A model generated the notes under the pieces. The model was given only the letters and a program-made list of their open reading frames with translations, was not told where the DNA came from and did not search any database. From contig JANCIK010000011.1 in assembly GCA_028532985.1 (NCBI GenBank), positions 372,001 through 436,000 of the forward strand: a stretch of 64,000 bases of DNA. Reading direction: 5' to 3'. The position numbers and the translations under genes were made by a program. This DNA is from Stropharia rugosoannulata. Taxonomy: Eukaryota > Basidiomycota > Agaricomycetes > Agaricales > Strophariaceae. Of this stretch, positions 14,871-64,000 are shown piece by piece. The number at the start of each line of letters is the position of its first letter. Positions within the stretch are counted from its first letter, which is position 1.

Positions 14871-14989
14871 CTGTACCAGAGTCAAAAATAAGAATTCAGG
14901 CAATGTTTTATTGTGTGTTAATGTATATCTCAGCTACCACTAAAATCCCTGAAGGCAGACAACCCTTGCGTGACTACGCGGTGCCGACA

Positions 14990-42066: not shown

Positions 42067-42270
42067 TAGATTGCTTGTTCCCTGTCTGGTATCTTGTGGG
42101 CATTTGGCCCTTTTTTTTATATTACATTTTGTTCCCGTAGTCAGTTGAGCTCTTGACCCAGAGTCAAGGGCAAATTCATATTTTTGTGTTTGGCAGAGAA
42201 TATAAGTCTATTAAGTAAATTAAGAACAAGCAACATTAATGTCTAGCAGACTTCTTGTTGCTCGACTTGG

Positions 42271-44499: not shown

Positions 44500-44671
44500 T
44501 GGAGGAGGGGTATAAATTGGTTCGATGAATGGATGTCACAATGGTATACGCAGTATATATATACATACAGACATGTGTATCGATATCGATTATTATGAAG
44601 CAGTACACATGTGGCATTGGTTTCTTAATATAAGGTCGAACACCAAATGCACATGCAACTGTCTACTCCCA

Positions 44672-46297: not shown

Positions 46298-47511
46298 TGA
46301 GAGGTCTACTGCGTAGCTAGACTCGAAATCGCGAAACACAACACACACACACACCCAGTGGAGCGAGATCCTATCCCTTAGATCGAGCGAACGCCCTCAA
46401 CTAAATGGTAGTATAATCTATGCTCTGCTCTGGTTCCCGTTCTGGGCGTGCGATGCGCACACCTCATGTCCTCTAGTCTTTGTAATAGCAAGTAGTGCCT
46501 GCAAGTTCGTTTGTAAGGAGGGGTTTAATTCTAGTAAATCTCAGATAGAGCCCGGTTGCTAGTGGCGTGCGCAAAGCAAAATGATAAATGAAATAAGTTG
46601 TTTTTAGCGAACGGCTTCGCTGCGCGCACTTCCGGGTCCGGTGACCTCGTACGATGCGCGGACTCTCCAAAGTCCAATAATCCAAGACTCTCCAAAGTCT
46701 TTCACCCGGCGGTGCAGTCTCACAGTCTAAACACTACAGTGCGAGTTTCCGTACACAGTTGTACTGACTCCTCACTGAGCTCTCCAAATGACCCGGTGGT
46801 CAGAAGCTATCCAAAACTCCTATGATTCACAAACACTTCACAGTTAAAACCCTAACAAAAGCTAAACACAGCCCGCTGACGGCCTGGGACAGAACCCAGC
46901 ACACAGATCTAGTGGGTAGACAATTGCTTAAATTACTATAGACAAGGATACAGGTTTATATGTGATGCGCGCATGTGTACTAATAATAAGGTAAAGTAAA
47001 TACTAGCAACGCGCGGCCAAAGGTCCGTGCATCGCATCTGGGCTTCCCTTCGAGTGTCCTGATCCCTTGGCATTCGCTGCGCGCATGTCGTTCATTCCCT
47101 CGGGCTTTTGCGCGTCTTTTGATGCGCGCCGCCACGGTCACATGATGTGTGGACTTAGACAAATTCTGCCTTTGCGATGCGCGCATATGAGATACGCGCA
47201 CAGCCCTTCACACCGCCTTTGGTATCCGCTCAGCTGTACTCACACCGCTCTTTGCTGGTGCTTAACCGTTCTACGCTTTCCTGATCGCTCGCACAGACGG
47301 CCAAACTATGCACTCTAGACTGTGCAGCTCGCTGACCAATCCTTCTCGCGATACAGTGCGCGCAGGCGCTTGCAGTCATGATGCTCGCGCGCTGATAGCT
47401 ATAGACTATGAGGCAGGCTCAACTCTAGTCTCTCTGTGTTTCCCGCGCGCAGCTATCCCACTAACGGACCTTCTAACTGTTTACACCCGTAGCCAAAAAG
47501 CAGCCCTGTCA
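46298..47511 (-). repeat. 3' LTR of the gypsy element (complete, 1,214 bases)
   Basis: It begins TGAGAGGTCTACTGCG and ends CCCTGTCA on the plus strand, so TG...CA on either strand. The same sequence starts again at 63,461. Over the 540 bases visible in both copies I count roughly twenty substitutions and two small indels, concentrated near 46,560-46,590. The LTR carries TGCGCGCA at 46621, 46966, 47079, 47178 and 47357. Its left edge cuts the KDZ transposase. The flanking five bases are GACGC; the matching duplication would lie beyond the window. Confidence 0.9.
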
Positions 47512-47525
47512 TCTCCCCCCCACTA
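47512..47525 (-). other. Polypurine tract for plus-strand priming
   Basis: Plus strand TCTCCCCCCCACTA, i.e. minus-strand AGTGGGGGGGAGA, directly adjoins the LTR start TGACAGGG on the minus strand. The position and G/A-run composition are as expected for a retroelement PPT. Confidence 0.8.
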
Positions 47526-48059
47526 AAATCTTGACTGTCCTCAGTCAATTTCGGGTGCGCGCATCTCATCTTTGATAGCAATTCCCCATTACCCTATTTT
47601 CCTGCCTACGGCCCCGCTACTGCCTTACGCGGTTACTACAGCCCCTCCGCCTGAGTCACTATCTCTATCCATCCTCTTCACTTCCTTTTCAGGTATCCCC
47701 TCCCGACTTTTCTTGACTAGCTTATTTTAGGCAACCGCCACCGCACGCATACGCGCACCGTACTTCCCGCTGACTTCCTTCTTGGGTCTTTTTCCTAGTC
47801 AGGTCTTTTCTTTTCCTTTTCTGAACCTTGCTGGACCTTCTTTTGGCGCTACGCTGTTCTAGCATATTGCCGGTAAGTTTACTCGACATGCGCTCATCGC
47901 CGTCCGCTTCCCTCATACTCCAGAATTTTCCGCCGCCCTTTTCTCCAAACTTATATACACCTCCCTGAATTCTTTTCAGCCCATCTCTCCTCTTTTCACC
48001 CTGCCCTTCCTGCTGCTTCCCTTCTCCTCCAACTTACCCTGGCATCTCGTCGCGATTTC
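47526..48059 (+). promoter_or_regulatory. Upstream region of antisense gene A
   Basis: The ~540 bases hold TTATATACAC at 47,951, about 105 bases before the ATG at 48,060, a likely TATA box. Long C/T-rich stretches (47,960-48,040) precede the start, a common feature of basidiomycete promoters. One TGCGCGCA lies at 47,556. Transcription here runs against the retroelement RNA. Confidence 0.5.
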
Positions 48060-50052
48060 ATGGCCTTCAACCAGCGCAGCTCCCTTCGCAAGCAGAAGAC
48101 CGCCGCCCGCGAGCGCGAACAATCCGATCATTTCCATCTCCTTCGCCCTGCCCTCGCCCACTATGATACGCTGGAGGATCTGAGCGCGCGCACCGAGCTG
48201 TCTCCAGATGACACTGCTCGATTCCACTCCGTGCGCGAACAGTTCGGGTTCGCGCTTGAACAACACCTTCTTGCCTTCCCTGCCGACGCCTTTCACCATG
48301 CGGGTACGCGCGAGCTCATCCTCCTACTCTCGTTGCTCGCGTTCGAAGATGACGACCCCGTGTACAGCTGGTCTTCCTCAGACCCAACTCAGCGCACCGT
48401 ATGGTATACGGAGTCCGATCTCGAGCCCGTAAGTAATTATTCCTTCTTGTTTTGCTGCGCTACGCTCATGCTCTCTTAGCTGCCATCTTATAAGCGCGCG
48501 TTTCTCACCGCGTTTCCTTCCTCCTGGTCCCCTGGGTCTCTACCCGAGCCCCGCATTCCATACATCCCTTTCGAGACAAACGACCGTGACGTGGAGATGA
48601 CTGGCCCAGAGGGGGAGGCGGTGGTTCCTCCCACAACTGTACCCGCGCCCCCTCCAGTGCCCTCGCGTGCTTCGTCCACACCCCCGCCTCCTTCTCCTTC
48701 GCCGGAGCCTCCTGCGCGCACCTCCCCGGTCCCACCTGTTCCTGCTCCCGCAGCGCCTGCCAAACACAAGCGCGCATCGCTTGTGCCAATCTCCTCCTTG
48801 CCGGTTCCCCCAGTCCCTAAGGCGAAGCGTCCGCGCACCGTAGTCGCCACCCCTGGGAACGTTCCTCTTCTCATTGGCCTTCGTCTTATACTTGACGCTT
48901 TTCTAGTGGCACAGGAGGCAGTGGCGGGTCCTTCCCGTACGCGCACTTCCGCGCCGGCGTCCTCTTCTCGTACGCGCACCCAGGTCGCGCCTTTGTTGCC
49001 CTCCTCGAGTGGGGTGACAGAGCTCTCGCGCCTCGAGGGCGTGGACTCTTCTAAAGTGGCTTACGAGTCCACTTACCCCGTCTACAACCTTCTCCCCGGC
49101 GTATATTCTGCTTCGCTCGCGGTGGCCGGCAAGCCCCTCCCCACTGCTATTACTATGGCGCAACTCCCTTCTGAGGGGCAGTTAGATGCTGCCGTAGTGG
49201 TACGTTCTTTTCTTACTTTCCTTTTCCTTCTTTGACTTATTCATTTTGCACACTCAGCCCGGTTTCGCTTGTTCCTTGTGCGACCACTCTTCTGGCACTT
49301 CCAAATCGGCCCCTCACCGTCTCTTTTGTCTCCTGCGCGGCCCAGGCAGGAAATGCGCCAGCTGTCGCTTGGGCAATCAGGGCCCTTGCCTGCAGGCTAT
49401 GCCTGGGCCTGAGTTGGATCGCGCTCTTGAGGGGTCATCTGGCTGGCATCGGACTTCTCCCCGCGGTGCGCGCATTCCTACTAGTTGTTTTCTTTTGACT
49501 TATCCTTTTTCTTTTCTAGAACTTCGTGCTGCCTTCGATCGTCTCGAGGCTTTCAGTCAACAAGCGCGTGCTCTAGAGGAATCGCGTCGCGGCTTACAAC
49601 GCCTCTACTTTGCGGAGCTGATTCTGCTGGTTCAGCTCGCCCAGGCCATGGCTGCCACCATGCCCACCAACGTCATTATCGGTTCTCGTTTCGCCGACTG
49701 CGAAACCTTCGACGCGCTTCGCGCTATGAACCTTGACACCCTCTGCGCCGCGTACGATGCGCTCTGCCAGCCTCTTGACTCCAACGAGCCCATCGCATTC
49801 ACTCCTCTATCCTCTTTCTTTGACCCTGAACATCCTCGACACGATCCTGCTACCTTCGTGCCCGTTCCCCAACCGTCCACTGCTACCAAAGCCCACGCAC
49901 CGGCTCCTTCCAAGGCCAAGTCATCCAAGGGCAAAGGAAAAGGGAAAGGTAAAGCTCCTGCCCGTCCTTACAAGTCCTCTTCTGTGGTCGCCGAAGAGTC
50001 GAATCCCGAGGCTTCTGCTGAGGAAGAAGATGGCGATAATATGGAGGCGTAA
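48060..50052 (+). CDS. Antisense gene A: six-cysteine basic protein carried by the retroelement
   Basis: Exons 48060-48428, 48480-49199, 49258-49465 and 49520-50052 give 609 residues with no internal stop. The order is: a charged helical N-terminus (MAFNQRSSLRKQKTAARERE); a Pro-rich linker with basic KRPR-type patches; a six-cysteine block starting at 49,270, spaced C-x2-C-x15-C-x8-C-x2-C-x7-C; a helical segment (LRAAFDRLEAFSQQARALEE); and a basic Gly/Lys tail with an acidic end. The layout parallels KDZ gene K1. The third intron (54 bases) has donor GT inside a TGCGCGCA and is in frame and stop-free, so it may be retained. No retroviral protein resemblance was seen. A nuclear DNA- or chromatin-binding role is inferred from composition. 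Confidence 0.7.
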
Positions 50053-50536
50053 GCCTTGCTGCGGGGCGCGCATTTTGGCGCTTGTTTTCTCCTTTTTTAC
50101 TTCTTGTTTCCTTCCTACTGTTCTATCTAGCATATGTAGAATAGCTGTGTTTTACTATTATATGCTTTCTAATGATTTTCTTGTCTCCTTCTTGTGTGAT
50201 CTTTAAGTTCTCTCTAAAACATCTAATAGCCTGGTTTCTTTTGAGCAGTTACAAGTGCCATGCGCGCATATGACCAATGTCCACTTGCTTGTATGTGCCC
50301 ACTAACTTCTGCTCCTGTCTTTCTACTGTGGGCGAGTATAAGTGCGATGCGCGCATATGAAAGATGTGCCCATGCGTATACGCTAGCCAACTGCTACTTC
50401 TGTCCTGCCCTTTCGACCTTTTGTATTATCTCCTTATCTCCTTAAGCTCCTAGATTTATCTCTGCTTGGCTGGGCCATCTCTCCCCCCCACTATAAATTC
50501 AACTGTCCCCAGTTGACAGTTTCTTTACTGCCTTAC
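50053..50536 (+). promoter_or_regulatory. Spacer with PPT-like tract and TATA box before antisense gene B
   Basis: Two GATGCGCGCATATGA-type words (50,259 and 50,346) resemble the LTR word at 47,176. At 50,477-50,515, ATCTCTCCCCCCCACTATAAAT and CAACTGTCCCCAGTTGA match the LTR/PPT junction at 47,511-47,548 (~80% by eye). TATAAAT at 50,492 lies about 40 bases before the ATG of gene B. So this spacer is a duplicated relative of the LTR-PPT region, now placed as a promoter. Confidence 0.55.
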
Positions 50537-51017
50537 ATGTCTCTCCGATATCAGCGCACTGCTGTCGCTCGCCAATTCACTGTTTTACTGAGACAACTCG
50601 CCATTCATGCGGAGCTCGCAGAGGACTGCAACAACGGCCCTTTTCACTTTCCTCTACAGTCTGCTCAGTCCCTCGTGCGCGCACTGGTAAAGTCCTTATG
50701 CTCATGCAAGCGCTTCCTCTACTGATGTTTTCCTCCAGGATCGCATTACACTGCCTTTGCGCTTTATCGACTTCAACCGCCAATTCCTGTCTTTAGTCAT
50801 GACGATCGTGTTTTACGAAGGCCGCGCTCAGCGCAGATTCAGCGATGATCATTTCGATGCGCGCATGCTCAGCAACGCCGCTCTTCACATTCTCGATCGG
50901 TACAGCCATCTTGGCATGCCTTTTCACAATCTCCCACCCTCGGAACCAACAGGGACCGCCCTTCTAGACGTAGATCCCGACGCTGCCCTTGTAGTAGATG
51001 ATATTAGCTACGATTGA
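50537..51017 (+). CDS. Antisense gene B: small helical protein of unknown function
   Basis: Exons 50537-50686 and 50739-51017 give 142 residues, starting MSLRYQRTAVARQF. The content is mostly helical, with an acidic C-terminus (DVDPDAALVVDDISYD). The 52-base intron has a GTAAAG donor 3 bases after a TGCGCGCA. No family is recognised. Only 17 bases separate its stop from the start of gene C, so B and C may be one transcription unit or a mis-split single gene. No splice pair that fuses them in phase was found. Confidence 0.55.
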
Positions 51018-51034
51018 GCCCGTGCGCGGCTCTG

Positions 51035-51637
51035 ATGGATCGTTTAGTGATATATATGATCCCTCAAATGAACATGTCTTTTATCATCATGCCCTCCTTC
51101 AATACCGAAAGTAATCTCCTTCAACGCGCAAGGTCCGATCCTTCCTTCTTGCGCTTGGCTGCTCTACCCAAGCGGGCGCTAGCTGATATTCCGCTCGATG
51201 ACCATGAGCGCGTCTGCCGCATCTACATAGGCGCCCTTCATTTTATTCTTGAGGCTGCGACTGAACCGCTGCTCCCCATGACCATCTGCCTAGACATGAT
51301 GCGTCACGTTCAAGACCATGCGGTGCGCGCATGTCCCCATTCTTCAGCCTTTTCGTGCACAGCTCTGACATCTTTGTAGCGGGCTCTGGCGCTGACCGAA
51401 GCTACCTGCCACTCGCCCCGCATCTCGCACTTGTGCGCTCAACTTCACTATAGCGAGCTCGTCCTCCGCTTGTGCGGCACTACCGATGCTGAGCGCTACG
51501 GCACCCTCCCTCACTCTGAACACTTCCAACAACTTCATTATGCCGCCCAGGTCTTTTATCAGGAAGAATTCTTTCCTGTAAGCCTCTTCTTCCCATGCGC
51601 TGCGCTGACCCTGACAATCACTTCTTAGGATGTCTAA
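51035..51637 (+). CDS. Antisense gene C: small helical protein of unknown function
   Basis: Exons 51035-51322, 51380-51577 and 51629-51637 give 164 residues. The donor of intron 1 (GTGCGCGCA) is itself the TGCGCGCA motif. The last exon encodes only Asp-Val-stop. Leu/Arg/Asp-rich helices (SFLRLAALPKRALADIPLDD; LHYSELVLRLCG) dominate. An upstream ATG at 51,035 is used because the frame is closed before it, but MSFIIMPSF at 51,071 is an alternative start. Function unknown. Confidence 0.5.
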
Positions 51638-52131
51638 TTCCCGAACTGACATTTTGCTGTCTCTTCATTGATAACTATCTATAGTCATAGCTAGCATCTA
51701 TTTCTTGGTACATGTGTCATGACCCTGTATTTGAAATAAGACTGTCGGGTAACATTGTTATGCATTTTCGGCTTCAATCTCAAAGCGGACATCAATTTGC
51801 CAAACGGGGAAAGACCTGCATCTCTTTTGATGCGCGCACCCTTTTTGCTGCGATGCGCGCACGATCCTCCCACCTCTTGTCGCTATATGGGCTCTTGTAT
51901 TCAGGTCCCCTCCATCCCACTCAATCTCCGTGAATGTAACGTCAGACAGGTGTAGCCCTGTGCTATGACCCATCTGGACCTTTTGTTGAGTCCCTCTTTT
52001 CTTAACTCCTTGGGCCTGCTGCTCAGTCACCAGCTGCGCGCAGCGCTGATCATCCCAGTGAATGCTATATAAGCGCTCGCCGTCTCTGTATGAGTGCATC
52101 GCATCTTATTCCTACTTTCTCAACCACCACT
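51638..52131 (+). promoter_or_regulatory. Spacer and promoter of antisense gene D
   Basis: It carries TGCGCGCA at 51,831, 51,854 and 52,035 and a TATATAAG at 52,066, about 65 bases before the ATG. No coding frame is supported in the spacer. Confidence 0.5.
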
Positions 52132-53448
52132 ATGGCTACTACTCATGCTCCTCTTTTCAACTTCACCAATGTCAAGCATCAGCTCTCGCTGATCCAGGAC
52201 ATTCGTGGGTTGGCCTCTGCCACTCCTGCGAATTACACCGGCAGCCTGGAGCTGCTTGCTGTCGATTTGGTGCGCGCATCGCGCGGTTCCCTTGTTGTAT
52301 GTTACTGACTTCGTCTGGCACGATTGCAGAACCGCTGGCGCGACGCGCACGGCGGTATCACTCGCGTTATAAACAACAATGAGGCTATCGAGATACTCAA
52401 TGAGACTCGAGCCATATATATGTCGCTCGAGGCTGACCACCACATTCGCTCCTTCTCCCCTGCCGCCAACGCATTTATCAACTTGCATGAACAAGTCCTC
52501 AAGGCTAAGGCTGCCGCTTCTCGTCAGCGCACCCATACCCCTACTGGACCGGTATGTTCATCTTCCTTCCCTAACCCTTTCTAGACTTAATCTCCCTTTT
52601 GATGCGCGCAGCGCAATGTTCGCGTTCTTACGCGTTCCGCAACTGCGGACCTTGAGACCGCCTCCGCGCCTGGAGGTACTACATCTCCTGACTCTGACGA
52701 TGACAAGGTGTGGCTAACCTTAGTTTCTTTACCAGACATCACTAACATGCAACTTTACATGCTCCTCAAAAAGATGGCCCTTGACGATAAAGTTGAAGCC
52801 GTAACTGAGGGAGGTCCTCCCAGCAGGCAGCATACACCCGAGCCGAGCCCTAACAAGAAGCGCACCGCGCCACCTGATACTCCCAAGCAGGTGTGTGTTT
52901 GACTTGTCTCTGCTGCGCGCACTTAGATTCTTATAGAAATACCAGCGCGAGCGTGGAGACACTCCCGGTTACCGCTCTCGTCCCCTTGGTCGAGGCATGA
53001 CTTATCGTCAGACCGAGCTTCGTCGCTCATTCCGTGACGCCGCCGCAGGTGAAGCCTCTCCTAAGAAAGCCAGACTGGGCTCAGAGGGCGTTCCTATGTT
53101 CCCCGATTCTCCTTTTATTATGCAAGGTGTGCGCACCGCACCACTCTCTTACTAATCTTTTCTAACCCTTCTCCCTCAGGCACTTCTCTCGTTTTGGACA
53201 ATGACAAGGTCAATGCTTGTCTTGATGCCGCCGCTAACCTCCTTAAGGAGCCCCTTAATACGGGTAACCCTTCCGAGTTGGTGACGCGCCGCCTCATTGG
53301 TGATTTACAAGCAGAGATCATTTGTGATCTCCACAAGGTCGACTTCATCCTCAAGCGCCGCGCGCTCCTCGTCAAGCAGCTTGTCATCTTGCAGCGCAGC
53401 CTCGACGTTACTGGCGTTACTGCCACCGAGGACAAACCGGCCCAGTAG
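52132..53448 (+). CDS. Antisense gene D: helical/basic protein of unknown function
   Basis: Exons 52132-52269, 52330-52551, 52612-52707, then from 52708 or ~52774 to ~52890, ~52938-53126 and ~53181-53448. GTGTGG...AAG at 52708-52773 is 66 bases, in frame and stop-free, so its splicing is uncertain. The start is MATTHAPLFNFTNVKHQLS. The middle is Ser/Pro/acidic (TSPDSDDDK, SPNKKRTAPPDTPK), then an Arg-rich stretch (YRSRPLGRGMTYRQTELRRS), ending in a helical domain to the stop. Donor of intron 1 and acceptor of intron 2 both overlap TGCGCGCA. It converges on integrase, with 127 bases between stop codons. No family is recognised. Confidence 0.6.
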
Positions 53449-53575
53449 ATAGCCTGGCTCAATGTGCGCTGCGCGCCTTAAAGGGGCGTCTGTAGCTAGC
53501 TCTCTTTGTATTCCCCATCTTCTTTACCCAATATATTATATTGTGGTCACTTTTCTTCCTACGGAGCTCGCACAT

Positions 53576-54613
53576 CTAAGTGTCTTCTTCGCCCCAGTCA
53601 TCATCGTCTTCTTCATCTTCTTCCACTGTAAGCGCACCGCTACCCGAGGGTACACCGGGCTCATCAAAGATATAATCTTTGGGAATAGCTGGCTCATAGT
53701 CCGGTGCCTCTAACATCTTAGCGAGGTTCTCCTTGGTCTGATCAATTATATCATCCAGACCGTCCGGTAAGCGCAGCTGCCTTCGTGCAAAGTAGGGAAT
53801 GAGGCGGAATGCCGCCACCTTATCCTTCAACACAGAGCCATCCATCTCTGCCACTAAGTACGCTCCACCATCTTTTCGTGCGATAATGATGTAAGGCCCG
53901 TTCCATCGTGCGAGCATCTTACGGTTCAGACTGGATTCTATGCCCGAGTTCCTCATTAACACCACATCTCCTGGCTTAAACACATAGTCACGGATTTTAG
54001 CCGAGTGCTTCTTTTCAAATGCTCTGATCGCATCTCTTTTTGTTTTTGATACTCGTGCGCGCATCTCCTCTACTGTGTCGCAATGCTTGGCTAGTGCGCG
54101 TGCGCGATACCCTACTAACTCCTCCGTAGTCAGTACGCGATCTGGTAGTTTCACCAGCCAAGTCGCTTCTGCTATGTCGAATGGTAGTATGGGGTGCGCG
54201 CCCGTTACCATGAAGAATGGGGAACACCCGAATCCTCGTCGCACAGTGATACGATCCGCCCACAACACATGGTAAAAGAATCTACTCCAACGCTTATGCG
54301 CGCCTTCTGTCCCTCCACACGCTTTCCACAACATCTGTCTTATGTCCCAATGAGGACGCTCTATTTTTCCATTCGCTTGCGAGTTGTACGCGGAGATAGT
54401 AATCCCTGTAATCCCATACTTCTTTTCTAAATACTTGAGCGCTGCGCGGAACGGTCCACCGTTATCTGTGATGATTTCTTGTAGACAGCCCCAACGGCAG
54501 ATAATGTCCTCGAATATCCACTGCGCTATCGCACGGGCATTCTCTTTCTTTAACGGCCGCCCTTCTGCCCATGAGCTCAGCGCACATCTTCCGTGCACTA
54601 TGTAATTATACCC
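53576..54613 (-). CDS. pol: Integrase, C-terminal two thirds (part of pol, separated by insertion)
   Basis: It resumes at GYNYIVHGRCALSSW after the insertion. It contains the retroviral-type integrase core with TDNGGPF (second Asp) and YNSQANGKIERPH, whose Glu is the third catalytic residue. A C-terminal domain follows (KPGDVVLMRNSG, WNGPYIII) and an acidic tail. The first catalytic Asp lies in the other part at ~57,180. Without the insertion the two parts would read in one frame. As it stands, integrase is split and this copy is unlikely to integrate by itself. Confidence 0.85.
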   Translation of the reverse strand, partial: GYNYIVHGRCALSSWAEGRPLKKENARAIAQWIFEDIICRWGCLQEIITDNGGPFRAALKYLEKKYGITGITISAYNSQANGKIERPHWDIRQMLWKACGGTEGAHKRWSRFFYHVLWADRITVRRGFGCSPFFMVTGAHPILPFDIAEATWLVKLPDRVLTTEELVGYRARALAKHCDTVEEMRARVSKTKRDAIRAFEKKHSAKIRDYVFKPGDVVLMRNSGIESSLNRKMLARWNGPYIIIARKDGGAYLVAEMDGSVLKDKVAAFRLIPYFARRQLRLPDGLDDIIDQTKENLAKMLEAPDYEPAIPKDYIFDEPGVPSGSGALTVEEDEEDDDDWGEEDT

Positions 54614-57151
54614 CATCAGCAAATCTGGACCTTACTATACACTGTTATGTAGTATTATATAGCACCATAGCACCATAGTAAGGGTTCTTGTCTATTTAAT
54701 ACTCCATAGAATAGGCCCATCACTATATAGTATCCAGGCTACTCTACATAGTATTGTATAACACTCTGTAGTACTACATACATTAGGCTATATTCTATAT
54801 AATGCAAGCATAATAGGAGTACTTGCCATGGCTGATTAGAGCAAGTAGTCCTCATTTGTTTTCATATCAGAGAACATAATGTATATGACATACTACCAAA
54901 CTAATACAGGATACATACTAGTTGAGTAATCAAGAAAGTACTTAATGATAGGACGCTTAGGAAGATGGAAAATCTGCTCGGAATGACGCGTTTAAGGGCT
55001 TGTTAGAAAGCTTGAATTGACGCGAAGACACTCCAAAAAACCGCGAGGCAATTGCAGGAGTCGTTCCGGACTTAGAGCCAAATTAGTCCAAGACAAAGAG
55101 ATGGAGGAGGACATGACTACTCACAGGCATCCAGAAATCCCAAAATTTGTGTGAGGGATGCGTTCAAAGACCAATTGAAGGGTGCATAAGCATGCAAAGT
55201 TACAAAAGTTTCTGTTGAAAACTGAAGGGGGGAGATGATATTCAAGTCTTCAACAGCAGTTATATGGTCATCAGGGAGGTCGGATATTGAGGGCGTATCA
55301 GACCCCGCAAACTGGACTATTAGTTTATTACTATCTGTAGTAGAAGACTCCAAAAAAAATCAGGCAAAAATACGAACAGGAACCCAAGATATGAAGTACT
55401 TTACCTAGAGGGGGAAGGGGGAGGAGGACCACATGGAGGTTTTTTGGATTTCAAGCAGCAATATGGAGCGTTTGAGGGCTCATTGGAAAGCTACAATCAA
55501 GGTGAATTCAGCATTCCAAGAATTGAAAAGATGCGAGACAAACCTATGTCAGAATCACTGAAATACATCAGAACTCCGAAGTTGACCAATAACTTGAGAT
55601 GGAGGACGCTTCGTTGCTCCATAAATCAAGCCGTTGCCGGGGCAGGTAGCTAATAACGTTAAGTAGGATTTCCCAAAGTTTGAAGTGCTCAGGACAACTA
55701 GAACCGCACCTATGAATTAATTTGTCACACCTAGGGGAAGGAGAACACCCAGATTAAGATCACCCTTAAACTCGTCAAATCGCGCAATGAATGGTACTGT
55801 TGGATAGGTATTAATAAGAAGAATTAGGAAATGTAAAAATCATACTGTTTGGCCGAGTATTGACAAATATATGAGGGAAAATGCGTCCTAGGGGCACTTG
55901 ATATCTATAAGATGGTACATAACAAGTACAGGATGAATTACAGTGATCTTGCAGACGGTTAGCAGAGGAATAAATAGGTCTTAAAGGTTCAAAAGGAATT
56001 GAGGATAGAGGTGGCCAGTGTCCGGAGTTATGGCACTTTCAAGCAGAGGCAGTCCAGGGGCAGGAGGAGCACATCACGGTTGGACAGCTTCCAGGCGTCA
56101 GAGTCGAACGTTTAAGGGCTCGATGGAATCTCCTAATGCCCAGGAGCTCATATGTGAAAAGAACGACACAATAAACCCAACACATACCTTTAGAATTGAT
56201 AAAACATCGGAAATTGGGGAAGGAGGGCAACATAGCCGGTTCTCGCCTTCCAGCCGACCAAATCCATTGGTCTTGAGCTCGTTAGAACCGCATAATTGCC
56301 CACAATATGAATATGCGGTGACCGAGGGCTCGGAGGAAACAGACAAGATAGAAAGTGGTGAAATGTTCCAATAGGGGTCGCAAAATGATGATCAGTTTGC
56401 GGATTGAATACAGGTCTATTTGGGACGTTGTTGGGTGCGTTAGAAACGTATAAATGAGCTGAAGACGTACAAAGAAACCGTTTGATAATGCGGTAAATAG
56501 TTTCAATGATATGAAGCGATCTCTATAGGAGTATACACTCATTCTATCCACATTTGCCCTCCTGACATAAAGCCAAGCCCTATTCATGATCTAACAAGGT
56601 AGCATCCACAAAGTAATGCCTGAGTAGAGTGGAGCCTAAGCATACAAGTAAAGCTGAGGGAGGGGGTTGGGGAACATGAGAGTGAAGTGCAAGTGAAGTC
56701 CGAAGGGGACTTAGGATTTGCGAGCTTTGACAAGTCACGTGATAATTCCGGAGCAGTCGACTCTAAGTCAATTCACCACTAAGGTACAATGACAGTATTT
56801 TCCCTGTATCTCAGTCAATTTTCAACCAATAATCTAGAAATTTTGGCATTGTAATGCTTAATTATATGGATACTGAATTGCACAACTTTCAAAGCTCAGA
56901 TAAACACCCTTCCACCTGTATCAGATTGACTCTATTGTTGCTCTACTGGTATACTAAATTCAATAGTGCTAAGCCTAAGGGTTTTTATGAATTATGAAGT
57001 AATATAACATACTATATAACTAGTATACTTTACTATATAGTGTTATGATACTATGAGCTATTATGAGCTTAGCCTAAGTATTATGTGACACTATGACATC
57101 AAGTGCTATTATTATGACACGCTATGAGAAAATGATCAGATTTGCTGATGC
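54614..57151. mobile_element. 2.5 kb DNA element inserted in integrase, 14-base inverted ends
   Basis: The ends are exact inverted repeats, CATCAGCAAATCTG...CAGATTTGCTGATG. The flanks share only CC (GG on the minus strand), consistent with a 2-base duplication: removing the insert and one GG rejoins integrase in frame. Both ends carry ~150 bases of AT-rich words such as ACTATATAG and TATGATACTATGAG. The interior (about 55,010-56,700) holds diverged ~550-base-spaced units with GTTTAAGGGCT...GGAAAGCT and GGAGGAGGAC...CAT. No transposase frame is present, so the element is non-autonomous. It has no TGCGCGCA, unlike the surrounding retroelement. Confidence 0.75.
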
Positions 57152-60050
57152 CATTGGAGGCCGGGGACATGTGCATAGTGTCCGCGTGTAGTTGCTGGAA
57201 GATAGACGGCGTGTGTGTCTCGGTGCGCGGGATCTGGATGATCGTCTTCTGCCTTAACTGACAGACATGACATGTTTTTACATACCAGTAGACATCCCTT
57301 TCCAACTCAGGCCACCAGAAGCGCTCCGCTAGCAATTTGCGCGTAGCGTACGCTCCTCTGTGCCCCAAGCTGTTATGCGCTGAGCGCAGCATGCGTGTCC
57401 GCTGCGCCTGATCTATCACCAACTTATGCACGTCATCTATGGATCTCCGGTACATTCGTCCGTCCTTGTCTAGGAAGAAGTTGCGAGCGTTCCTCGTAAA
57501 GTTCTGATATTCTCGCTCCGTCATGCCTTTAGGCCTAGTGGTTGGATTCTGCAGCCAGTAGCGTATCATCGGCAATTTCTCATCCATATCTTTTCCTGCA
57601 GACGTCCTGTTGTGCTCATCGTACTCCTCATCCTCCAGATCCTCTATTCTGGAGTTGGGTATTGCGTGCGCTAGTATGAATTTCTCTAAGTACTCGCGCT
57701 GCGCGAGCGGCACACTCTCTTTCTGTATGAAGTCCCGCACGGCCCGCTTTTCCGCTTCCGTCTCTTTCCGTGCGCGCTCGACCTCCTGCTGGAAACAGCC
57801 TATAGAGCGCGCTTCTGGTAACTTGCGCGCCGTGGGACCTTCAAACAACTCGTTGAGGAGTCCTGTATATAGATACCCTCCGCGATCATCAATCTGTTCC
57901 TTGAATTCTTCAAAGTCCAGGGGATCTGGGTCATCTTCATAGACTTTCTCATATTCGAGCGGTCCCACCTCCTGATCATCATCTTCTTCGGAGTGCGCGT
58001 ACACCTCATCTCCAGGTTGCCCTTCCCTACGCGATAAACCATCCGCACCAAAGGTTTTGCCTGCGACATGTTTCAACTGGAAGTGATACATAAGTATTTT
58101 ATCTATCCAGCGATTAATAGTCGCATTAGGGCCCATGCCCGGGTTATCCAACATGCCCTTCAAGTATTTGGCATCCGTTTCCACCACCAGCTTGCGCGCA
58201 CCGATGAGCCAGTAATAACAGGCTTGCAGCGCATGCAAGAGTCCATACAACTCCCGCTTGGGCTGTGAGAAGCGCTGCTCGCGTTCTGTTAACAGTATTG
58301 ATCCGAAGCGCGCATATACCCTCTTCTTCGAATCTTGTGGGTCCTGCTGGTAAATATAGAATCCTACTGCTCGCCAGGATGTGTCTACAGCCAAAGTAAT
58401 CGGCCCTGGCAATGTGTATTCCAGTGGTTTCACGCAATGTGCGTTGCGCGCACCGTCTTTCAGCGAGTCCATGCTAGCTTGCTGAGCGGGCCCCCACTCA
58501 AAGGGCTCTTTCCCACGCAATAGCCGCTGTATGTGCTCTGCACGCTTCGCATAGTCTGAGATGTAAATACGGAGCAGACCCATTGTACCCATGAATGCGC
58601 GCACATCGCTGATGTTCTTGCATGGCCCCCAATTGAGGATCGCATGCACTTTATCAGGTGCTGGCTTTCGCCCTTCGTATGTGCACAAGTGCCCCACCAC
58701 TACTATCTCAGCCGCGCACAGTATGGACTTCTTTCCACTAAATGTTCCTCCTGAATACTTCATGCGCTGCACGATTCTGTTGACATTCAACATGTGCTCC
58801 CATATGAATCTCCTTATTCCCTTATTCTCTGGTATCGTCTCGTATCCTCCTCCTTCTAACTCATAGCGCGTTTTAGGTCCCCTAATAGGTACATCGTCTA
58901 TATAGGGCTCTGTAACTTCAGGTATTTCATTGCGTAATATATATGCGACATCCTTGTGAAAGATGGGCACGGAGTTCGTCCATCCCATAGGTAGGGTTAC
59001 TAAGCGCAGCGCACCGAACGGTGTCTGGAATGTAGTCAGGTCTCTAGAGGATTCAGCTAACAGCCGCTCATCGTACCCAACATACAAGTCCAGGATGCCG
59101 CCACATGCGCGCCCCGCAAAGTGTTCCGCTAGACTCTCCGCTGCTGGAGGTAGTCCTGAATGTGCAATGGTTACCGCATTTAACGGTTCCAGACTGTGCA
59201 CAATTCTGAACGAGACCCCGTCTTTCTTAGTTACTGTAAACCAGCGCGACCGGTACGATGAGCTCGAGGGTTCATACGTGCCTGCGCGAATCTTGGTGGC
59301 AATGAATTCACATACGCACTCATACATCCCAGGTGGTATCGGAATGTTCTTCAATACCCAAGGCGTGTGCTCTACAGTGGGAATGTCTACTGGAGGGAAG
59401 AAGTCCGTACGGAATCTACCCTTCTCTGTGTCATCCCACGCGAACGCCTCGTTCTGCTGCATGAAAACTTGATGCACCAACTTGCGCTCCTCGGACCACA
59501 GGAAATCCCCTTCATGCGCCTTGTCAATCCCTTCCATGCGCTCAGCGGTGTACCGACCTGTAGGTACGAAGTCTGGCGGATGTGGTGACAATTGCGGCAT
59601 GTCCTTTAGTGGGTCTCCTTTTATCTCCCTCACTATTCTAAACTTCTCTGGTAAATCTTGATAGACGGGCCTGACTTTCTCAGCCACTGGCTTATACTTC
59701 TTTCCTGCGAGCACCATAACGGTGGTGGCATTCTTGCCAGTCAAGCGCTTATGCGTTACTCCTTGTCTTTTACTAGGGACCTGTTCCTTGTGCGATGCGC
59801 GGAACTGCCCTCTAGGCTCTCCTTTGAATACTTCTTCCTTGTGCCATTCGCGCTGCTGAAAATACTTGTATATTCTTTCTTTCTCATCATCCTCCATCTT
59901 TGCCTCGTGTACTGCTTGAGCCATGTATACATCCCTGAGCTCCGCGCTCCCAAACCGCTTCTTATTCTTTGGTAGCGCGTACCCCGCTATTTCTATTTTC
60001 CCCGTGCGATCATCTCTGTCAAACATCAACGCGACCTCTCCTTGACGCAT
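57099..60050 (-). CDS. pol: Pol: reverse transcriptase, RNase H, integrase N-terminus
   Basis: About 980 residues. The ATG at 60,050-60,048 overlaps the protease stop (TGATG). An N-terminal linker is followed by RT starting near VDIPTVEHTPW, with the catalytic YIDD (PYIDDVPIRGP) intact. RNase H blocks are LAVDTSWRAVGFYIY, QPKRELYGLLHAL and VVETDAKYLKGML. After an acidic spacer comes the integrase zinc domain (H-x-H...CHVCQLRQK) and the first catalytic Asp in QLHADTMHM. At 57,151 it runs into the inserted DNA element and stops at 57,099 after 18 unrelated residues. It replicates the element RNA into DNA inside virus-like particles. The frame is otherwise unbroken. Confidence 0.9.
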   Translation of the reverse strand: MRQGEVALMFDRDDRTGKIEIAGYALPKNKKRFGSAELRDVYMAQAVHEAKMEDDEKERIYKYFQQREWHKEEVFKGEPRGQFRASHKEQVPSKRQGVTHKRLTGKNATTVMVLAGKKYKPVAEKVRPVYQDLPEKFRIVREIKGDPLKDMPQLSPHPPDFVPTGRYTAERMEGIDKAHEGDFLWSEERKLVHQVFMQQNEAFAWDDTEKGRFRTDFFPPVDIPTVEHTPWVLKNIPIPPGMYECVCEFIATKIRAGTYEPSSSSYRSRWFTVTKKDGVSFRIVHSLEPLNAVTIAHSGLPPAAESLAEHFAGRACGGILDLYVGYDERLLAESSRDLTTFQTPFGALRLVTLPMGWTNSVPIFHKDVAYILRNEIPEVTEPYIDDVPIRGPKTRYELEGGGYETIPENKGIRRFIWEHMLNVNRIVQRMKYSGGTFSGKKSILCAAEIVVVGHLCTYEGRKPAPDKVHAILNWGPCKNISDVRAFMGTMGLLRIYISDYAKRAEHIQRLLRGKEPFEWGPAQQASMDSLKDGARNAHCVKPLEYTLPGPITLAVDTSWRAVGFYIYQQDPQDSKKRVYARFGSILLTEREQRFSQPKRELYGLLHALQACYYWLIGARKLVVETDAKYLKGMLDNPGMGPNATINRWIDKILMYHFQLKHVAGKTFGADGLSRREGQPGDEVYAHSEEDDDQEVGPLEYEKVYEDDPDPLDFEEFKEQIDDRGGYLYTGLLNELFEGPTARKLPEARSIGCFQQEVERARKETEAEKRAVRDFIQKESVPLAQREYLEKFILAHAIPNSRIEDLEDEEYDEHNRTSAGKDMDEKLPMIRYWLQNPTTRPKGMTEREYQNFTRNARNFFLDKDGRMYRRSIDDVHKLVIDQAQRTRMLRSAHNSLGHRGAYATRKLLAERFWWPELERDVYWYVKTCHVCQLRQKTIIQIPRTETHTPSIFQQLHADTMHMSPASNGISKSDHFLIACHNNST

Positions 60051-61318
60051 CAAATCATCGAGGATTGAAAATCCTGATCTGCGTTAGGGTTTTCCGTTGT
60101 GCCAGGGTCCTGCAACTTAGGTTCGCGCTGCACAATCTTGGGACCGCACCCTCGGTTATAGGTGGGTACTACCAGCTTGCGCTGTGTGTTGGGATCGGTG
60201 AGCGTAAGCTCAACCGTTCCATCGCCGCGCGTCTTCACATTGCTCTCCGTGAGGATCTCGAACGGCCGGCCCAAGAGCACCTCGTAAGCCGCTGCGCTGA
60301 TGACATGCACTTGTAAGTACACCGTCAGTCCGTTGAACACAAATGGTACGTTGCGCGCTAAGCCCTTGGTGGATTCCACCTGCTTATTCGCGCTCTGCAT
60401 CCGTATAGTGAAATCCGGGTCCCAACTAAGTCCTAAGCGCTCAGCGGTGTCCTGTGCCATTGACACAATCTGCGACCCACTGTCGAGCAACGTCTCTGCG
60501 TGTCCCTTGCCGTTGATGAGAGGAAACACCGCCTTCAGATGGTGCGATTCGCGCGCCACAATAAGTCCCTTAGGCTTTTCGCCTGGCTGCAGAGTTGAGA
60601 CGTACTGCTCATACGGGTCTTCCATGATGATGGTCCCCGGTTGCAGTCCGCTGCGCTCATCTGAGCAAGTAAGGAAAGTGGCCACTGGTAGCTCATCCAT
60701 CTGCATAAACTCCTCTTCCTCTTCTTCTTCTGCTAACCGCGCGATAGCTTCATCTACCTCGCGCTCTTCTTCATCGTAGTCTAATTGTAGTACGCGCATC
60801 GTATTCAAATCCAATGGTACCTTTCTTGGTACTATGCGCTCAACGAATTTTCTTCTGAAACCTGCAGTCGATATGCCTAACAACTGGCCCTGCGTGATCT
60901 CAACCTTCTGATTTTCTAAATGTTTGAGGACTGCGTCAGCCTGCGCTTCATCTTCGATAGGTGCGCGCAGCTTATAAGCAGGTTTCCTCTTCTCTACTAC
61001 AGGTATGGGTTCTTCCCTTACTTTAGGCTTTACTTTCTCCGGAACGCGCAGCGGAGGTACCATTACATATGGCACTGCTGCTGGTCGTGCACTAGGCCCA
61101 GCCTTTGCAGGAACCTCGAACACTACTTTCTTCTTTACTGGTGCGCTGCGCGCACCTTGCTCCTCCACTACTTCTCGCAACTCATCTTCCTCATTCTCAC
61201 TCACGTCCTCAACTGATGCTCTGGGTATATTTCTGATTGGTAACTTCTTATTTGCGCCCTCCGGGTTCTTGGGTTTATCAGAGCCGCTACGCATAACTCT
61301 GCCCGTGTTTCCCTTCAT
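60050..61318 (-). CDS. pro: Retropepsin-like protease ORF
   Basis: About 422 residues. The first half is a charged linker (KKKVVFEVPAKAGPS, EEEEEEEF). The second half has a retropepsin fold with active-site LLDSGSQIVSM and a later LLGRPFE, the counterpart of the second conserved ILG/LLG block. Its ATG (61,318) lies six bases after the gag stop, in the -1 frame. Its stop TGA shares bases with the ATG of pol. So protease is a separate cistron between gag and RT. It would cleave the gag and pol products. Confidence 0.85.
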   Translation of the reverse strand: MKGNTGRVMRSGSDKPKNPEGANKKLPIRNIPRASVEDVSENEEDELREVVEEQGARSAPVKKKVVFEVPAKAGPSARPAAVPYVMVPPLRVPEKVKPKVREEPIPVVEKRKPAYKLRAPIEDEAQADAVLKHLENQKVEITQGQLLGISTAGFRRKFVERIVPRKVPLDLNTMRVLQLDYDEEEREVDEAIARLAEEEEEEEFMQMDELPVATFLTCSDERSGLQPGTIIMEDPYEQYVSTLQPGEKPKGLIVARESHHLKAVFPLINGKGHAETLLDSGSQIVSMAQDTAERLGLSWDPDFTIRMQSANKQVESTKGLARNVPFVFNGLTVYLQVHVISAAAYEVLLGRPFEILTESNVKTRGDGTVELTLTDPNTQRKLVVPTYNRGCGPKIVQREPKLQDPGTTENPNADQDFQSSMI

Positions 61319-61323
61319 CAGAC

Positions 61324-63372
61324 TCAATCGAAACCCTGACTAAGCGCAGCATCGCGTTCGGCTTTCATAGTTGCTATTAGCTGACGCTGTTCTTCTATCA
61401 CCTCCTCAGGCGTCTTCGCCGATGCGCGCTCCTTCAGAAACGCCTTCTTACTCTCCAGCTCTTGCTGAAGTGCGCGTATCTGCTCCTCATAGGTCTCGTC
61501 CAAGGAACTGGCCGGTTGGTACATCTGCGAGTATACCATGCTAGGAGGTATACCCATGTACGAGGGATGGACGGGTGCCATATATGCTTGCTGCGCAGGC
61601 TGTCCGTTCTTCTTATGCCATTCATCGACGCGCTCTTTAATCGCGCGCGAAGGGTCCCAAGGTATCGATGACCCGTCAGGTAGCTGTAAGCGCCCCGCCT
61701 CTGTGATGACAATCCTCCCCGCTGACAAGTCTTGCTGCCGTACGATGCACTCAGCCACCACATGTCCCGTCTGCTTGCAGTAGAAGCAACGGGGCTCCGG
61801 GTGTTGTTGGTATTGGAAAGGCCTAGGCGGCGGTCCACCGAAACCCGGTGCGCTCATGGGCATCATGGGGGCTACTGGTTGCACAGGCACCGACATCGGT
61901 GCGGCGCGCGCAGCCATGACATTGCGAATAATGTCCTCCAACTCCTTCTTACTCGACTCCTTCGACTTCGCCACTGTCTTCTCCACTAACGACAAGGTAT
62001 CTTTAAAAGAGGCGACGAACCCTTTCAGGTCCTCAATCTCTCCGCGCAGCGAACCAACATCCACGGCCTCAGTCTTGATGGCGGGCACCGGCATAAGTCC
62101 ATCAGTGCTATTGCGCCCTAGGCTCAGCGTAGTGCTTGGGTTCTTAGTACGGGCCATTTGTTCCGCCATCTCGGCTACTTGTTTGAGCGGATACATGTCC
62201 TTGGTGCGCACTTCTACCGTCACCCCAGTAGGTGCAGTGAACTGTATATTGCGCTCAGTCAAGAACTTGTCGAACGATGCGCGCGTCGTGTAATCAATGT
62301 CCAGTTTATTAAACAGACGATCCCTGAACCCCGCAGTGAGACTATTGGTGAAGTAAGTCACCAAGGTATGATTCGCGAGCAGGGTAGGCGCTTTCGTGAG
62401 CTTAGCGGCCTCGGCCAGGAACGCGCGCTTGAAGTCCAGCAACACCTGGAGGTCTTCCTCCGAGATGCGCTGATTCTCCTTGCAGAGCTTCTTGAGCCGC
62501 GCGATGGACCCTGTCTGAATGCTGATCACCTCCGGGTACTCGTTGAGAATCATTTTCTTGAGCTCCGCGTACCCCTTGGTATCATAACCTGGTAGATTCT
62601 TCCATTCCTCCGCCGTCTGCATGGGTACATATTTTATTACATATCCCCTCTTCTCATCATCCTCCGTCACCTCCGCGCGCTTAAACCAATCCTCCAGGTC
62701 CTCGAAGTACCGCGGCAGCTCATCGCGCTCTGCAGCAGGATCGAAGCTCGGCGTGCCGCGCGCACCGCGTACTGGCATGGACATATCCTTAGGCATAGTT
62801 TCTGGTTCTCGTGGGGGTGAATTTCGTTCGCTTTCTGAAAGATCTGACAAGTCTCCTTCAAATATATCTCTCGCTACGCACTCTGCTTCACTTTCGCTAT
62901 TTTCCGCCGTGCGCTGCGCGGATGTCTTAGCAGTTCCAAATACTTCCGAGAATGGAGGAGGGGTGTCTTGGGTAGCTTGGCTATCAGAAGTACCGAATGG
63001 TGCGGTTTCAAGTGTAATATCACCGTCCACTAATTGGTCTTCTGATTGAATGCCAGATGGTGGTCCCCAAAATCCACTAGTCCCTACTCTTAATTCCGAG
63101 TCGCTTTCGGTGAGCGCACCTGGGATGCGCTGCGCTAATCCCTGAGTCTCGATCTGCAACTGCGCTTCCTCCCTCGCTCTTTTCTTTGCTTTTCTGTCTC
63201 GCGTCGGTGTAATTACCAACGGCTCTACCAGCTCAGCGTCTTTCTTGCTCCTCGTGGTTCTCTCGCGTGAAGGCACCGTTCCAAAGGATGGTCTGGCTTC
63301 TTCTGGCTCGGCGAGCGATGAAGGCGCAGGAAATTTGCCTCGCTTGTTACTCGTCCCCGTTTTAGTTGAAAT
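61324..63372 (-). CDS. gag: Gag: capsid and nucleocapsid
   Basis: The frame is open from 63,381 to the stop at 61,324. It contains a retrotransposon-type capsid region (YFEDLEDWFKRAEV, WKNLPGYDTKGYAELKKMI, FTNSLTAGFRDRLF), a coiled coil, and a CCHC zinc knuckle CFYCKQTGHVVAEC. A Gln/Glu-rich coiled C-terminus follows. No in-frame ATG exists before the middle of the protein. The codon ATT at 63,372-63,370, preceded by CAAAA, sits where an ATG would be expected, so a start mutation is plausible. GTG at 63,276 is the next near-cognate codon. It forms the particle and binds element RNA. Confidence 0.8.
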   Translation of the reverse strand: MSTKTGTSNKRGKFPAPSSLAEPEEARPSFGTVPSRERTTRSKKDAELVEPLVITPTRDRKAKKRAREEAQLQIETQGLAQRIPGALTESDSELRVGTSGFWGPPSGIQSEDQLVDGDITLETAPFGTSDSQATQDTPPPFSEVFGTAKTSAQRTAENSESEAECVARDIFEGDLSDLSESERNSPPREPETMPKDMSMPVRGARGTPSFDPAAERDELPRYFEDLEDWFKRAEVTEDDEKRGYVIKYVPMQTAEEWKNLPGYDTKGYAELKKMILNEYPEVISIQTGSIARLKKLCKENQRISEEDLQVLLDFKRAFLAEAAKLTKAPTLLANHTLVTYFTNSLTAGFRDRLFNKLDIDYTTRASFDKFLTERNIQFTAPTGVTVEVRTKDMYPLKQVAEMAEQMARTKNPSTTLSLGRNSTDGLMPVPAIKTEAVDVGSLRGEIEDLKGFVASFKDTLSLVEKTVAKSKESSKKELEDIIRNVMAARAAPMSVPVQPVAPMMPMSAPGFGGPPPRPFQYQQHPEPRCFYCKQTGHVVAECIVRQQDLSAGRIVITEAGRLQLPDGSSIPWDPSRAIKERVDEWHKKNGQPAQQAYMAPVHPSYMGIPPSMVYSQMYQPASSLDETYEEQIRALQQELESKKAFLKERASAKTPEEVIEEQRQLIATMKAERDAALSQGFD

Positions 63373-63439
63373 TTTTGTAATTTATTGTAATAGGCGCAAG
63401 CCGTAGTTCCCGAAACACTAATTGAGATTTCTGAACCTT

Positions 63440-63458
63440 CCCCTCGCGGTGGGCTCCA
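63440..63458 (-). other. Primer-binding site
   Basis: Two bases inside the 5' LTR the minus strand reads TGGAGCCCACCGCGAGGGG. The plus strand therefore ends ...GGGCTCCA, as the CCA end of a tRNA. The position and TGG start are as expected for a PBS. The matching tRNA was not identified. Confidence 0.7.
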
Positions 63459-63460
63459 GA

Positions 63461-64000
63461 TGAGAGGTCTACTGCGTAGCTAGACTCGAAATCGCGAAAC
63501 ACAACACACACACACACCCAGCGGAGCGAGATCCTATCCCTTAGATCGAGCGAACGCCCTCAACTAAATGGCAGTATAATCTATGCTCTGCTCTGGTTCC
63601 CGTTCTGGGCGTGCGATGCGCGCACCTCGTGTCCTCTAGTCTTTGTAATAGCAAGTAGTGCCTGCAAGTTCGTTTGTAAGGAGGGGTTTAATTCTAGTAA
63701 ATCTCGGATAGAGTCCGGTTGCCAGAGGCGCACACTAGGCAAATGATATATGAAATAAGTTGTTTTAGCGAACGGCTTCGCTGCGCGCACTTCAGGGTCC
63801 GGTGACCTCGTTCGATGCGCGGACTCTCCAAAGTCCAGAAATCCAAGACTCTCCAAAGTCTTTCACCCGGCAGTGCAGTCTCACAGTCTAAACACTACAG
63901 TGCGAGTTTCCGTACACGGTTGTACTGACTCCTCACTGAGCTCTCCAAATGACCCGGTGGTCAGAAGCTATCCAAAACTCCTATGATTCACAAACACTTC
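63461..64000 (-). repeat. 5' LTR of the gypsy element, first 540 bases (cut by window edge)
   Basis: Matches 46,298-46,839. Here the word GATGCGCGCACC (63,616) keeps TGCGCGCA where the left LTR has a G-to-A change. The other LTR has CCGGCGG at ~46,706 where this one has CCGGCAG. The rest of the LTR (about 675 bases) and the remaining part of the KDZ element should follow outside the window. Confidence 0.9.

What the first reader, a model, noticed from the sequence alone, without database searches (positions are those of the whole stretch)
46298..64000. A gypsy retrotransposon of unusual size carrying four antisense, intron-bearing genes
Seen: LTR, PBS, gag, protease, pol and PPT all lie on the minus strand. 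Between pol and the 3' LTR are four spliced frames (A 48,060-50,052; B 50,537-51,017; C 51,035-51,637; D 52,132-53,448) on the plus strand, each frame-consistent and two or three with their own TATA box. Known: some plant gypsy elements carry extra antisense ORFs at this position, but fungal gypsy elements are normally 5-8 kb. I recall no fungal family with a multi-gene antisense cassette. Inference: the element has acquired accessory proteins that help it, as giant elements and retroviruses do.
Basis: partly seen in the sequence, partly recalled or inferred. Interest (0 to 1): 0.88.

Follow-up and report, generated by a model that had tools for sequence, protein, structure and literature searches.

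The report
Retrotransposon with antisense self-marking genes
A fungal jumping gene carries four extra backward-facing genes and is studded with a short DNA word that its sister family has replaced by another, which suggests that one of those genes lets it recognise its own copies, perhaps to keep the host from silencing them.

Summary
It is a Ty3/gypsy element of about 15.85 kb; this copy is longer because a 2.5-kb insertion splits its integrase. Genes A-D lie antisense between pol and the 3' LTR. They are no one-off: 76 of 95 B-exon matches in the genome have A, C and D collinear, and D lies opposite pol at 43 of 46 scored pol matches. All four are under purifying selection; A is hypervariable.

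New: the element is studded with a word, TGCGCGCA. A sister family with the same cassette has none inside the three copies read and uses TCCGCTGAGC instead. A distant gypsy family with another antisense cassette uses TCGGAAA; a neighbouring region with a KDZ-type domain uses CCGGCGGA. Noncoding CpGs in the word decay less than others.

This resembles the VANC anti-silencing system of plant VANDAL transposons. Best reading: a cassette protein, most likely six-cysteine protein A, binds the word and shields the element from silencing. Binding and effect are inferred. Single antisense genes are known (Retand, Grande, fungal Boty); a multi-gene intron-bearing cassette with a private word was not found in print.

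The parts
46298..47511 (-). 3' LTR (about 1214 bp, TG...CA)
47512..47524 (-). polypurine tract AGTGGGGGGGAGA beside the 3' LTR
48060..50052 (+). gene A, antisense, 4-5 exons, about 590-609 aa, six-cysteine module CxxC-x15-C-x8-CxxC-x7-C at residue 368, Lys/Gly-rich tail; hypervariable between copies
50537..51017 (+). gene B, antisense, 2 exons, 142 aa
52132..53448 (+). gene D, antisense, 6 exons, 352 aa in the model
53576..54613 (-). C-terminal part of integrase/pol
54614..57150 (.). nested insertion of 2537 bp, 40.8% GC, splitting the integrase of this copy
57151..60083 (-). pol: reverse transcriptase, RNase H, first part of integrase
60050..61339 (-). protease frame (gag-asp_proteas)
61324..63381 (-). 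gag frame, 685 aa, weak zinc-knuckle match below its cut-off
63442..63458 (-). primer binding site TGGAGCCCACCGCGAGG (read by eye; tRNA not identified)
63461..64000 (-). 5' LTR, runs out of the window; its far end was not found
46298..64000 (.). 27 dispersed TGCGCGCA sites, e.g. 46621, 46966, 47178, 49467, 50261, 51324, 52271, 52603, 54056, 58193, 60962, 63617

Best explanation
The family carries its own nuclear accessory genes and an address code. The genes are probably transcribed from their own TATA promoters on the strand opposite gag-pol; in that orientation their introns are not introns of the genomic RNA and survive retrotransposition. A cassette protein, most likely A through its six-cysteine module, binds the short family-private word scattered through LTRs, introns, spacers and, less densely, coding DNA. 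Bound protein keeps the host's silencing (CpG methylation, heterochromatin) off the element in trans, so that the family protects only its own copies, as VANC proteins do for VANDAL transposons. Shown: anatomy, reality and conservation of the genes; density, privacy and partial maintenance of the word; a CpG-decay footprint. Inferred: that a cassette protein binds the word, that it is A, and that the outcome is anti-silencing.
For: Same cassette antisense at the same place in the family and its sister. Purifying selection on A-D. Word density highest in introns (5.64/kb) and LTRs (4.32/kb), lower in coding (1.00-1.17/kb), 0 in 8.9 kb of flank; enriched in coding DNA over synonymous shuffles (31 against mean 3.5). 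Sister family: 0 sites in 28 kb, another word at 2.6-7.5/kb, sites not at the same places (1 of 22, 1.10 expected). Genome-wide 12-mers 31 against 1 and 260 against 6 for reversed controls; 27 of 31 lie within 13 kb of scored family-1 matches, 5.2% of the genome. Noncoding CpGs in the word: 8.0% read TpG/CpA against 17.6% outside it. DNA-methylase domains in the genome. A six-cysteine protein in each of the word-bearing elements looked at.
Against: No binding, methylation or expression data. A also varies within family 1 (cysteine module 48% identical at the lowest) where the word is constant. In 6 of 17 copies (L015, L018, L024, L025, L028, L032) the word's CpGs are decayed as much as or more than the others, and in accessory coding DNA there is no difference, 11.1% against 9.8%. 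A-D match no Pfam family and the module no solved structure convincingly. The family-3 protein is not shown to be related to A. In the KDZ-type neighbour the word is denser in long ORFs than elsewhere (2.98 against 1.56 per kb), unlike the noncoding bias of VANC targets. The family-2 word is not absent from family-1 coding DNA (0.55-0.97/kb).
Confidence: 0.5

Rival explanations
1. The word is the binding site of a cassette-encoded transcription activator or insulator (Tat-like) that drives the LTR and the four antisense promoters; silencing is not involved.
For: Density is highest in LTRs and introns; each gene has a TATA word; accessory regulators encoded antisense are known in retroviruses (PMC7264820 passages).
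Against: Sites also lie throughout pol, gag and protease, above synonymous shuffles, where a promoter factor is not needed; total replacement of the word between sister families.
Confidence: 0.23
2. The cassette and the word are unrelated: A-D serve in particle assembly or nuclear import, and the word is read by integrase, gag or a host factor.
For: No direct link between A-D and the word; A varies while the word stays. Gag and pol also differ between families.
Against: A region with a KDZ-type domain, not a retrotransposon, also has such a word, so a retro-specific role of the word is unlikely to be general; a host factor would not explain private words.
Confidence: 0.17
3. Antisense transcription itself regulates the element (double-stranded RNA), and the frames are incidental.
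For: Antisense transcripts with such roles are discussed for other elements (PMC7264820 passages).
Against: dN/dS 0.05-0.28 for all four frames, conserved introns in frame.
Confidence: 0.05
4. The word is a by-product of base composition, codon use or repeats.
For: The words are GC-rich; one control bin (9.2-18.4 kb) also has an enriched word, which traces to inverted repeats.
Against: 100 shuffles: mean 1.41, largest 6, against 29; synonymous shuffles; three other control bins have nothing above -log10 p 4.9; lower decay in noncoding DNA.
Confidence: 0.05

Closest known systems
VANC anti-silencing proteins of VANDAL transposons, Arabidopsis (PMC5735166: abstract and Results read; PMC10398659: abstract)
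   Same: Extra element-encoded gene; short word dense in the family and rare elsewhere; bias to introns and other noncoding DNA; related families use different words; variable protein; several genes in the element
   Different: Retrotransposon in a fungus, antisense cassette; no Pfam similarity; the word is also in coding DNA; tandem arrangement of sites not tested with TRF; binding and demethylation not shown
Retand, Grande, RIRE2 antisense aORFs, plants (PMC11963269: abstract and passages; PMC7264820: passages)
   Same: [quoted passage not shown] suspected nuclear or DNA-binding role; own promoter reported for Grande
   Different: Four spliced genes here; no TRP28 domain; a private dispersed word is not mentioned in the passages seen
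Boty/BcGypsy1 with brtn, Botrytis (PMC7264820 and PMC8365987 passages; Zhao 2011 not seen)
   Same: Fungal gypsy element with an antisense extra gene
   Different: One gene is described; sequence not compared here
TET/JBP-carrying fungal DNA transposons, including KDZ (PMC12730594: passages)
   Same: Fungal transposons thought to counter DNA methylation with a protein of their own
   Different: An enzyme; [quoted passage not shown]

Membership tests
Ty3/gypsy LTR retrotransposon | gag, protease, RT, RNase H, integrase in this order between LTRs with PBS and PPT | tested here: met
   order and Pfam matches; integrase split in this copy
Ty3/gypsy LTR retrotransposon | short target-site duplication | tested here: inconclusive
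   4-bp GCGG at the C7 copy; none readable for the window copy; the C8 pair does not match
VANC protein family | DUF1985/DUF287 domains | tested here: not met
   no Pfam family at E <= 5 for A-D
VANC-like system (works like) | word enriched in the family, other word in related families | tested here: met
VANC-like system (works like) | element-encoded protein binds the word | not testable with these tools
   needs EMSA, DAP-seq or ChIP
VANC-like system (works like) | loss of DNA methylation over the element | not testable with these tools
   only the CpG-decay footprint was measured
Retand lineage | antisense gene between pol and 3' LTR | tested here: met
Retand lineage | TRP28 (PF04195) domain in the antisense gene | tested here: not met
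   RT phylogeny not tested
Fungal Zn2Cys6 DNA-binding domain | recognised by its Pfam model; CxxC-x6-C-x5-12-CxxC-x6-8-C (spacing recalled) | tested here: not met
   no match for A or for the module; second half fits, first loop of A is longer

The most novel reading that the evidence does not exclude
Large fungal transposons of both classes (gypsy retrotransposons and KDZ-type DNA transposons) share a self-marking strategy: each family carries a six-cysteine, zinc-type protein of its own and has spread a private short word, in three of the four seen here with a CGG core, through its whole body. Protein and word change together when families split, giving mutually blind, sequence-specific anti-silencing systems that arose independently of VANC.
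Probability: 0.35. Interest if true: 0.93.

Novelty: new variant of a known kind. Interest (0 to 1): 0.82.

Why it matters
The function of antisense genes between pol and the 3' LTR is called unknown in the passages seen (PMC7264820, PMC11963269). Here the genes come with a visible candidate target, so the question becomes testable by binding and methylation assays. If true, it extends sequence-specific anti-silencing from plant DNA transposons to retrotransposons and fungi, suggests how several related gypsy families stay active in one genome, and offers small proteins with new DNA specificities as epigenome tools.

Tried and rejected
Relatives of A and D in the large protein set: none at E <= 1. 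Not informative: hits are limited by length and spliced genes would appear as exon pieces. The pol control found 1636 relatives at E <= 1e-10 among 7043 candidates, best 77%, so related elements exist elsewhere but their DNA could not be read. Genome contigs and viral contigs: no relative confirmed. A, B, C, D are not similar to each other, and the family-3 cassette is not similar to A-D, by profile comparison. The six-cysteine likeness of the family-3 protein F3c to A failed a shuffle test with cysteines kept in place (5.8 bits; best of 2000 shuffles 13.9) and is reported as a pattern only. That pattern was written after seeing the proteins, so its rarity (2 of 484 window ORFs) is partly circular. 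PDB search with the module: weak zinc-finger matches, best E 0.069. TGCACGCA in L025 and L028 as an allele-specific word: rejected, these are the two most CpG-decayed copies. Rows dropped: L022, L023, L029, L033 from the family-1 motif, decay and divergence counts; L017, L025, L028 also from the dN/dS means. In one search L028 was treated as having an LTR at its start although none was found there (1 of 17 pieces). In one search only the 20 longest family-3 pol matches were used. Families at 44-55% identity were seen by coordinates only. Structure prediction was not run: the tool takes contiguous translations of the window, and these genes are spliced.
Full report
What is there. The window lies in a 47.97-Mb genome held as 20 contigs (G000:C11:372001-436000), fungal by its content. 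The minus strand of 46298-64000 holds a Ty3/gypsy element: gag 63381-61324, protease 61339-60050, pol from 60083. The LTR is about 1214 bp (46298-47511), shown by another copy (C7) whose two LTRs are identical over 1213 bp. A polypurine tract and a PBS, TGGAGCCCACCGCGAGG, lie where expected. The 5' LTR runs out of the window; where its end should lie the sequence is, by eye, not LTR, so this copy shows no TSD. The C7 copy has the 4-bp repeat GCGG; the C8 pair does not match.

Size. A 2537-bp insertion (54614-57150) splits the integrase; 19 of 20 fetched copies have the two sides adjacent. LTR-start spacings of 14,633, 14,666 and 14,639 at three other sites plus one LTR give about 15.85 kb. Most of the excess over an ordinary gypsy element is the region between pol and the 3' LTR.

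The four genes. A spliced-alignment script gave B at 141-142 aa in 20 of 20 pieces tried, C in 20 of 20 (7 models start upstream through doubtful introns and 2 lack the last intron, so its start is uncertain), D in 21 of 21 (L020 odd), and A at 549-624 aa in 20 of 20 (17 family 1, window included, and 3 family 2; several with doubtful introns, and L032 has a stop in the last exon). In the whole genome the last exon of A gives 101 matches, B 95, C 92 and D 97; every first-look candidate was scored, but the tool calls such counts lower bounds. Of 95 B matches 86 have A upstream, 90 C and 81 D downstream on the same strand, and 76 all three. Of 46 scored pol matches (411 candidates) 43 have D on the opposite strand within 7.5 kb and none on the same strand. 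Eleven D and twelve A matches have no B within 6 kb; I did not read them.

Selection. Mean dN/dS within family 1 (14 pieces, 91 pairs) is A 0.15, B 0.17, C 0.11, D 0.12, pol part 0.14; between families (42 pairs) 0.28, 0.08, 0.09, 0.05, 0.03. Synonymous distances above 1 are saturated, so ratios there are rough. The frames are real proteins. A stands out: mean dS within family 1 is 1.61 against 0.15-0.19 for its neighbours, so old A alleles sit on otherwise young backbones (exchange by recombination is my inference). Each gene has a TATA word within 170 bp upstream in 17 of 17 family-1 pieces, at closely similar distances; in family 2 B, C and D 3 of 3 and A 1 of 3; background 86 of 595 bins.

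The private word. TGCGCGCA occurs 27 times in the element outside the nested insertion and twice in the rest of the window; 100 shuffles gave a mean of 1.41 and at most 6 against 29. In 17 family-1 pieces its density is LTR 4.32, introns 5.64, spacers 2.80, accessory coding 1.00, pol 1.17 and flank 0 (of 8.9 kb) per kb. Introns of A and C begin in it and one of D ends in it (sites 49467, 51324, 52603). In coding DNA of five copies it occurs 31 times against a mean of 3.5 and a maximum of 8 in 300 synonymous-codon shuffles. GATGCGCGCATC occurs at 31 places in the genome against 1 for the reversed control; 27 of the 31 lie within 13 kb of a scored family-1 LTR, pol or A match, 5.2% of the genome.

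Sister family. Copies with pol 87-89% identical carry the same four genes at the same places (A 43%, B 70%, C 70%, D 77% identical on average). The three read (L034-L036) have no TGCGCGCA in 28 kb of element, and CGCTGAG, the core of TCCGCTGAGC, at 2.6-7.5 per kb; family 1 has CGCTGAG at 0.03-0.10 per kb in noncoding and 0.55-0.97 in coding DNA. Comparing one copy of each (L027, L035) from B to pol, 1 of 22 family-2 sites lies near a family-1 site, 1.10 expected. TCCGCTGAGCGC occurs 260 times in the genome against 6 for the control; of the first 100 listed 66 lie within 13 kb of a family-2-type D match, 1.8% of the genome. Family-2 sites in LTRs are all in one orientation, those in pol 12 and 13 in each, which speaks for a DNA rather than an RNA signal.

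A third family. L022 holds a more distant gypsy element nested in family-1 pol, with antisense spliced frames between pol and a 972-bp LTR. Its word is TCGGAAA, 26 sites in 8.9 kb against 1.6 expected. Only this one 3' side was read. An exon of its cysteine-module gene lies opposite pol at 18 of the 20 longest family-3 pol matches; pol is 96-100% identical there while the exon ranges from 57 to 100%, so a variable antisense gene beside a conserved backbone recurs. Homology of its proteins to A-D was not found.

A neighbour of another class. Left of the element, 37.4-46.3 kb holds an ORF with the KDZ-associated CxC2 domain, cut by the gypsy LTR, and a 662-aa ORF with a six-cysteine pattern. CCGGCGGA occurs 21 times there and once in the rest of the window, in both orientations. 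That the stretch is one KDZ transposon is my inference. Of 484 window ORFs of 60 aa or more only this one and A's exon have the pattern (the pattern was defined after seeing them). Its last 362 residues match 25 places in the genome, 6 of them (itself included) at 95-100%.

Is the word maintained? From B to pol, comparing family-1 copies pairwise, noncoding CpGs outside the word read TpG or CpA in 17.6% and changed otherwise in 5.6%; inside it 8.0% and 0.9%. In pol 10.5% outside and 5.4% inside; in accessory coding DNA no difference (9.8%, 11.1%). By copy, six of 17 have no decay in the word; six (L015, L018, L024, L025, L028, L032) have as much as or more than outside it, most of all the two most decayed (L025 26% against 18%, L028 30% against 17%). 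This fits selection on the word while an element is active and loss afterwards, but copies share history, so the counts are not independent. CpG transitions outside the word run at three to five times the non-CpG rate of 3.3%, a footprint of cytosine methylation (all); the genome has DNA-methylase domain matches.

How it most likely works. Each family addresses itself by a private word; the simplest reader is a protein of its own. A is the best candidate: it has a six-cysteine module, as have proteins of the other word-bearing elements, and it differs most between families 1 and 2. Against this, A also varies within family 1 where the word is constant. Zn2Cys6 proteins of fungi typically bind CGG triplets (recalled), and three of the four words contain CGG on one strand; the family-1 word does not. 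The set of features resembles that reported for VANC21 and VANC6 (PMC5735166, Results): a short word dense in the family's noncoding DNA, different words in related families, a protein that binds it and removes methylation from the element. I favour anti-silencing over plain activation, at about one in two.

What is known and what is new. Antisense genes between pol and the 3' LTR are known in Retand, Grande and RIRE2 (PMC7264820 passages; PMC11963269 abstract and passages), and one, brtn, in the fungal Boty element (cited there; original not seen). My searches found no fungal or retrotransposon anti-silencing system with a private word and no multi-gene antisense cassette; these saw listings of an open-access library that lacks most subscription journals. 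New here are the four-gene intron-bearing cassette, the private word in a retrotransposon, its replacement in a sister family, and a like word in a KDZ-type neighbour.

Noticed in passing
37400-46297: Region with a KDZ-associated CxC2 ORF (45006-46297, cut by the gypsy LTR) and a 662-aa six-cysteine ORF (40078-42063) has its own dispersed word CCGGCGGA, 21 sites against 1 in the rest of the window.
   Followed up: partly
54614-57150: AT-rich 2537-bp insertion in the integrase; CATCAGCAAATCTG at one joint appears inverted at the other. Its class was not determined.
   Followed up: no
L022, L023, L029, L034, L036: Elements of families 2 and 3 lie inside or directly against family-1 sequence, several times within the accessory genes or pol: possible preference for nested insertion.
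   Followed up: no
48060-50052: Gene A has about ten times the synonymous divergence of its neighbours within one young family (dS 1.61 against 0.15-0.19), suggesting exchange of old alleles between elements; the family-3 accessory exon shows a similar contrast with pol.
   Followed up: partly
57099-63381: gag, protease and pol are in three frames with overlaps of 16 and 34 nt, so two frameshifts would be needed.
   Followed up: no
6243-7027, 18091-19959, 26445-28763: GC-rich direct repeats about 80-87% alike in the left half of the window.
   Followed up: no
12546-13571, 13698-14881: Two inverted repeats of 374 and 429 bp, 98% and 97% alike; they explain the enriched word GCGCGGA there.
   Followed up: partly
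33830-35668: Peptidase_C54 (ATG4-like) match on the minus strand, E 2.6e-15; probably a host gene.
   Followed up: no
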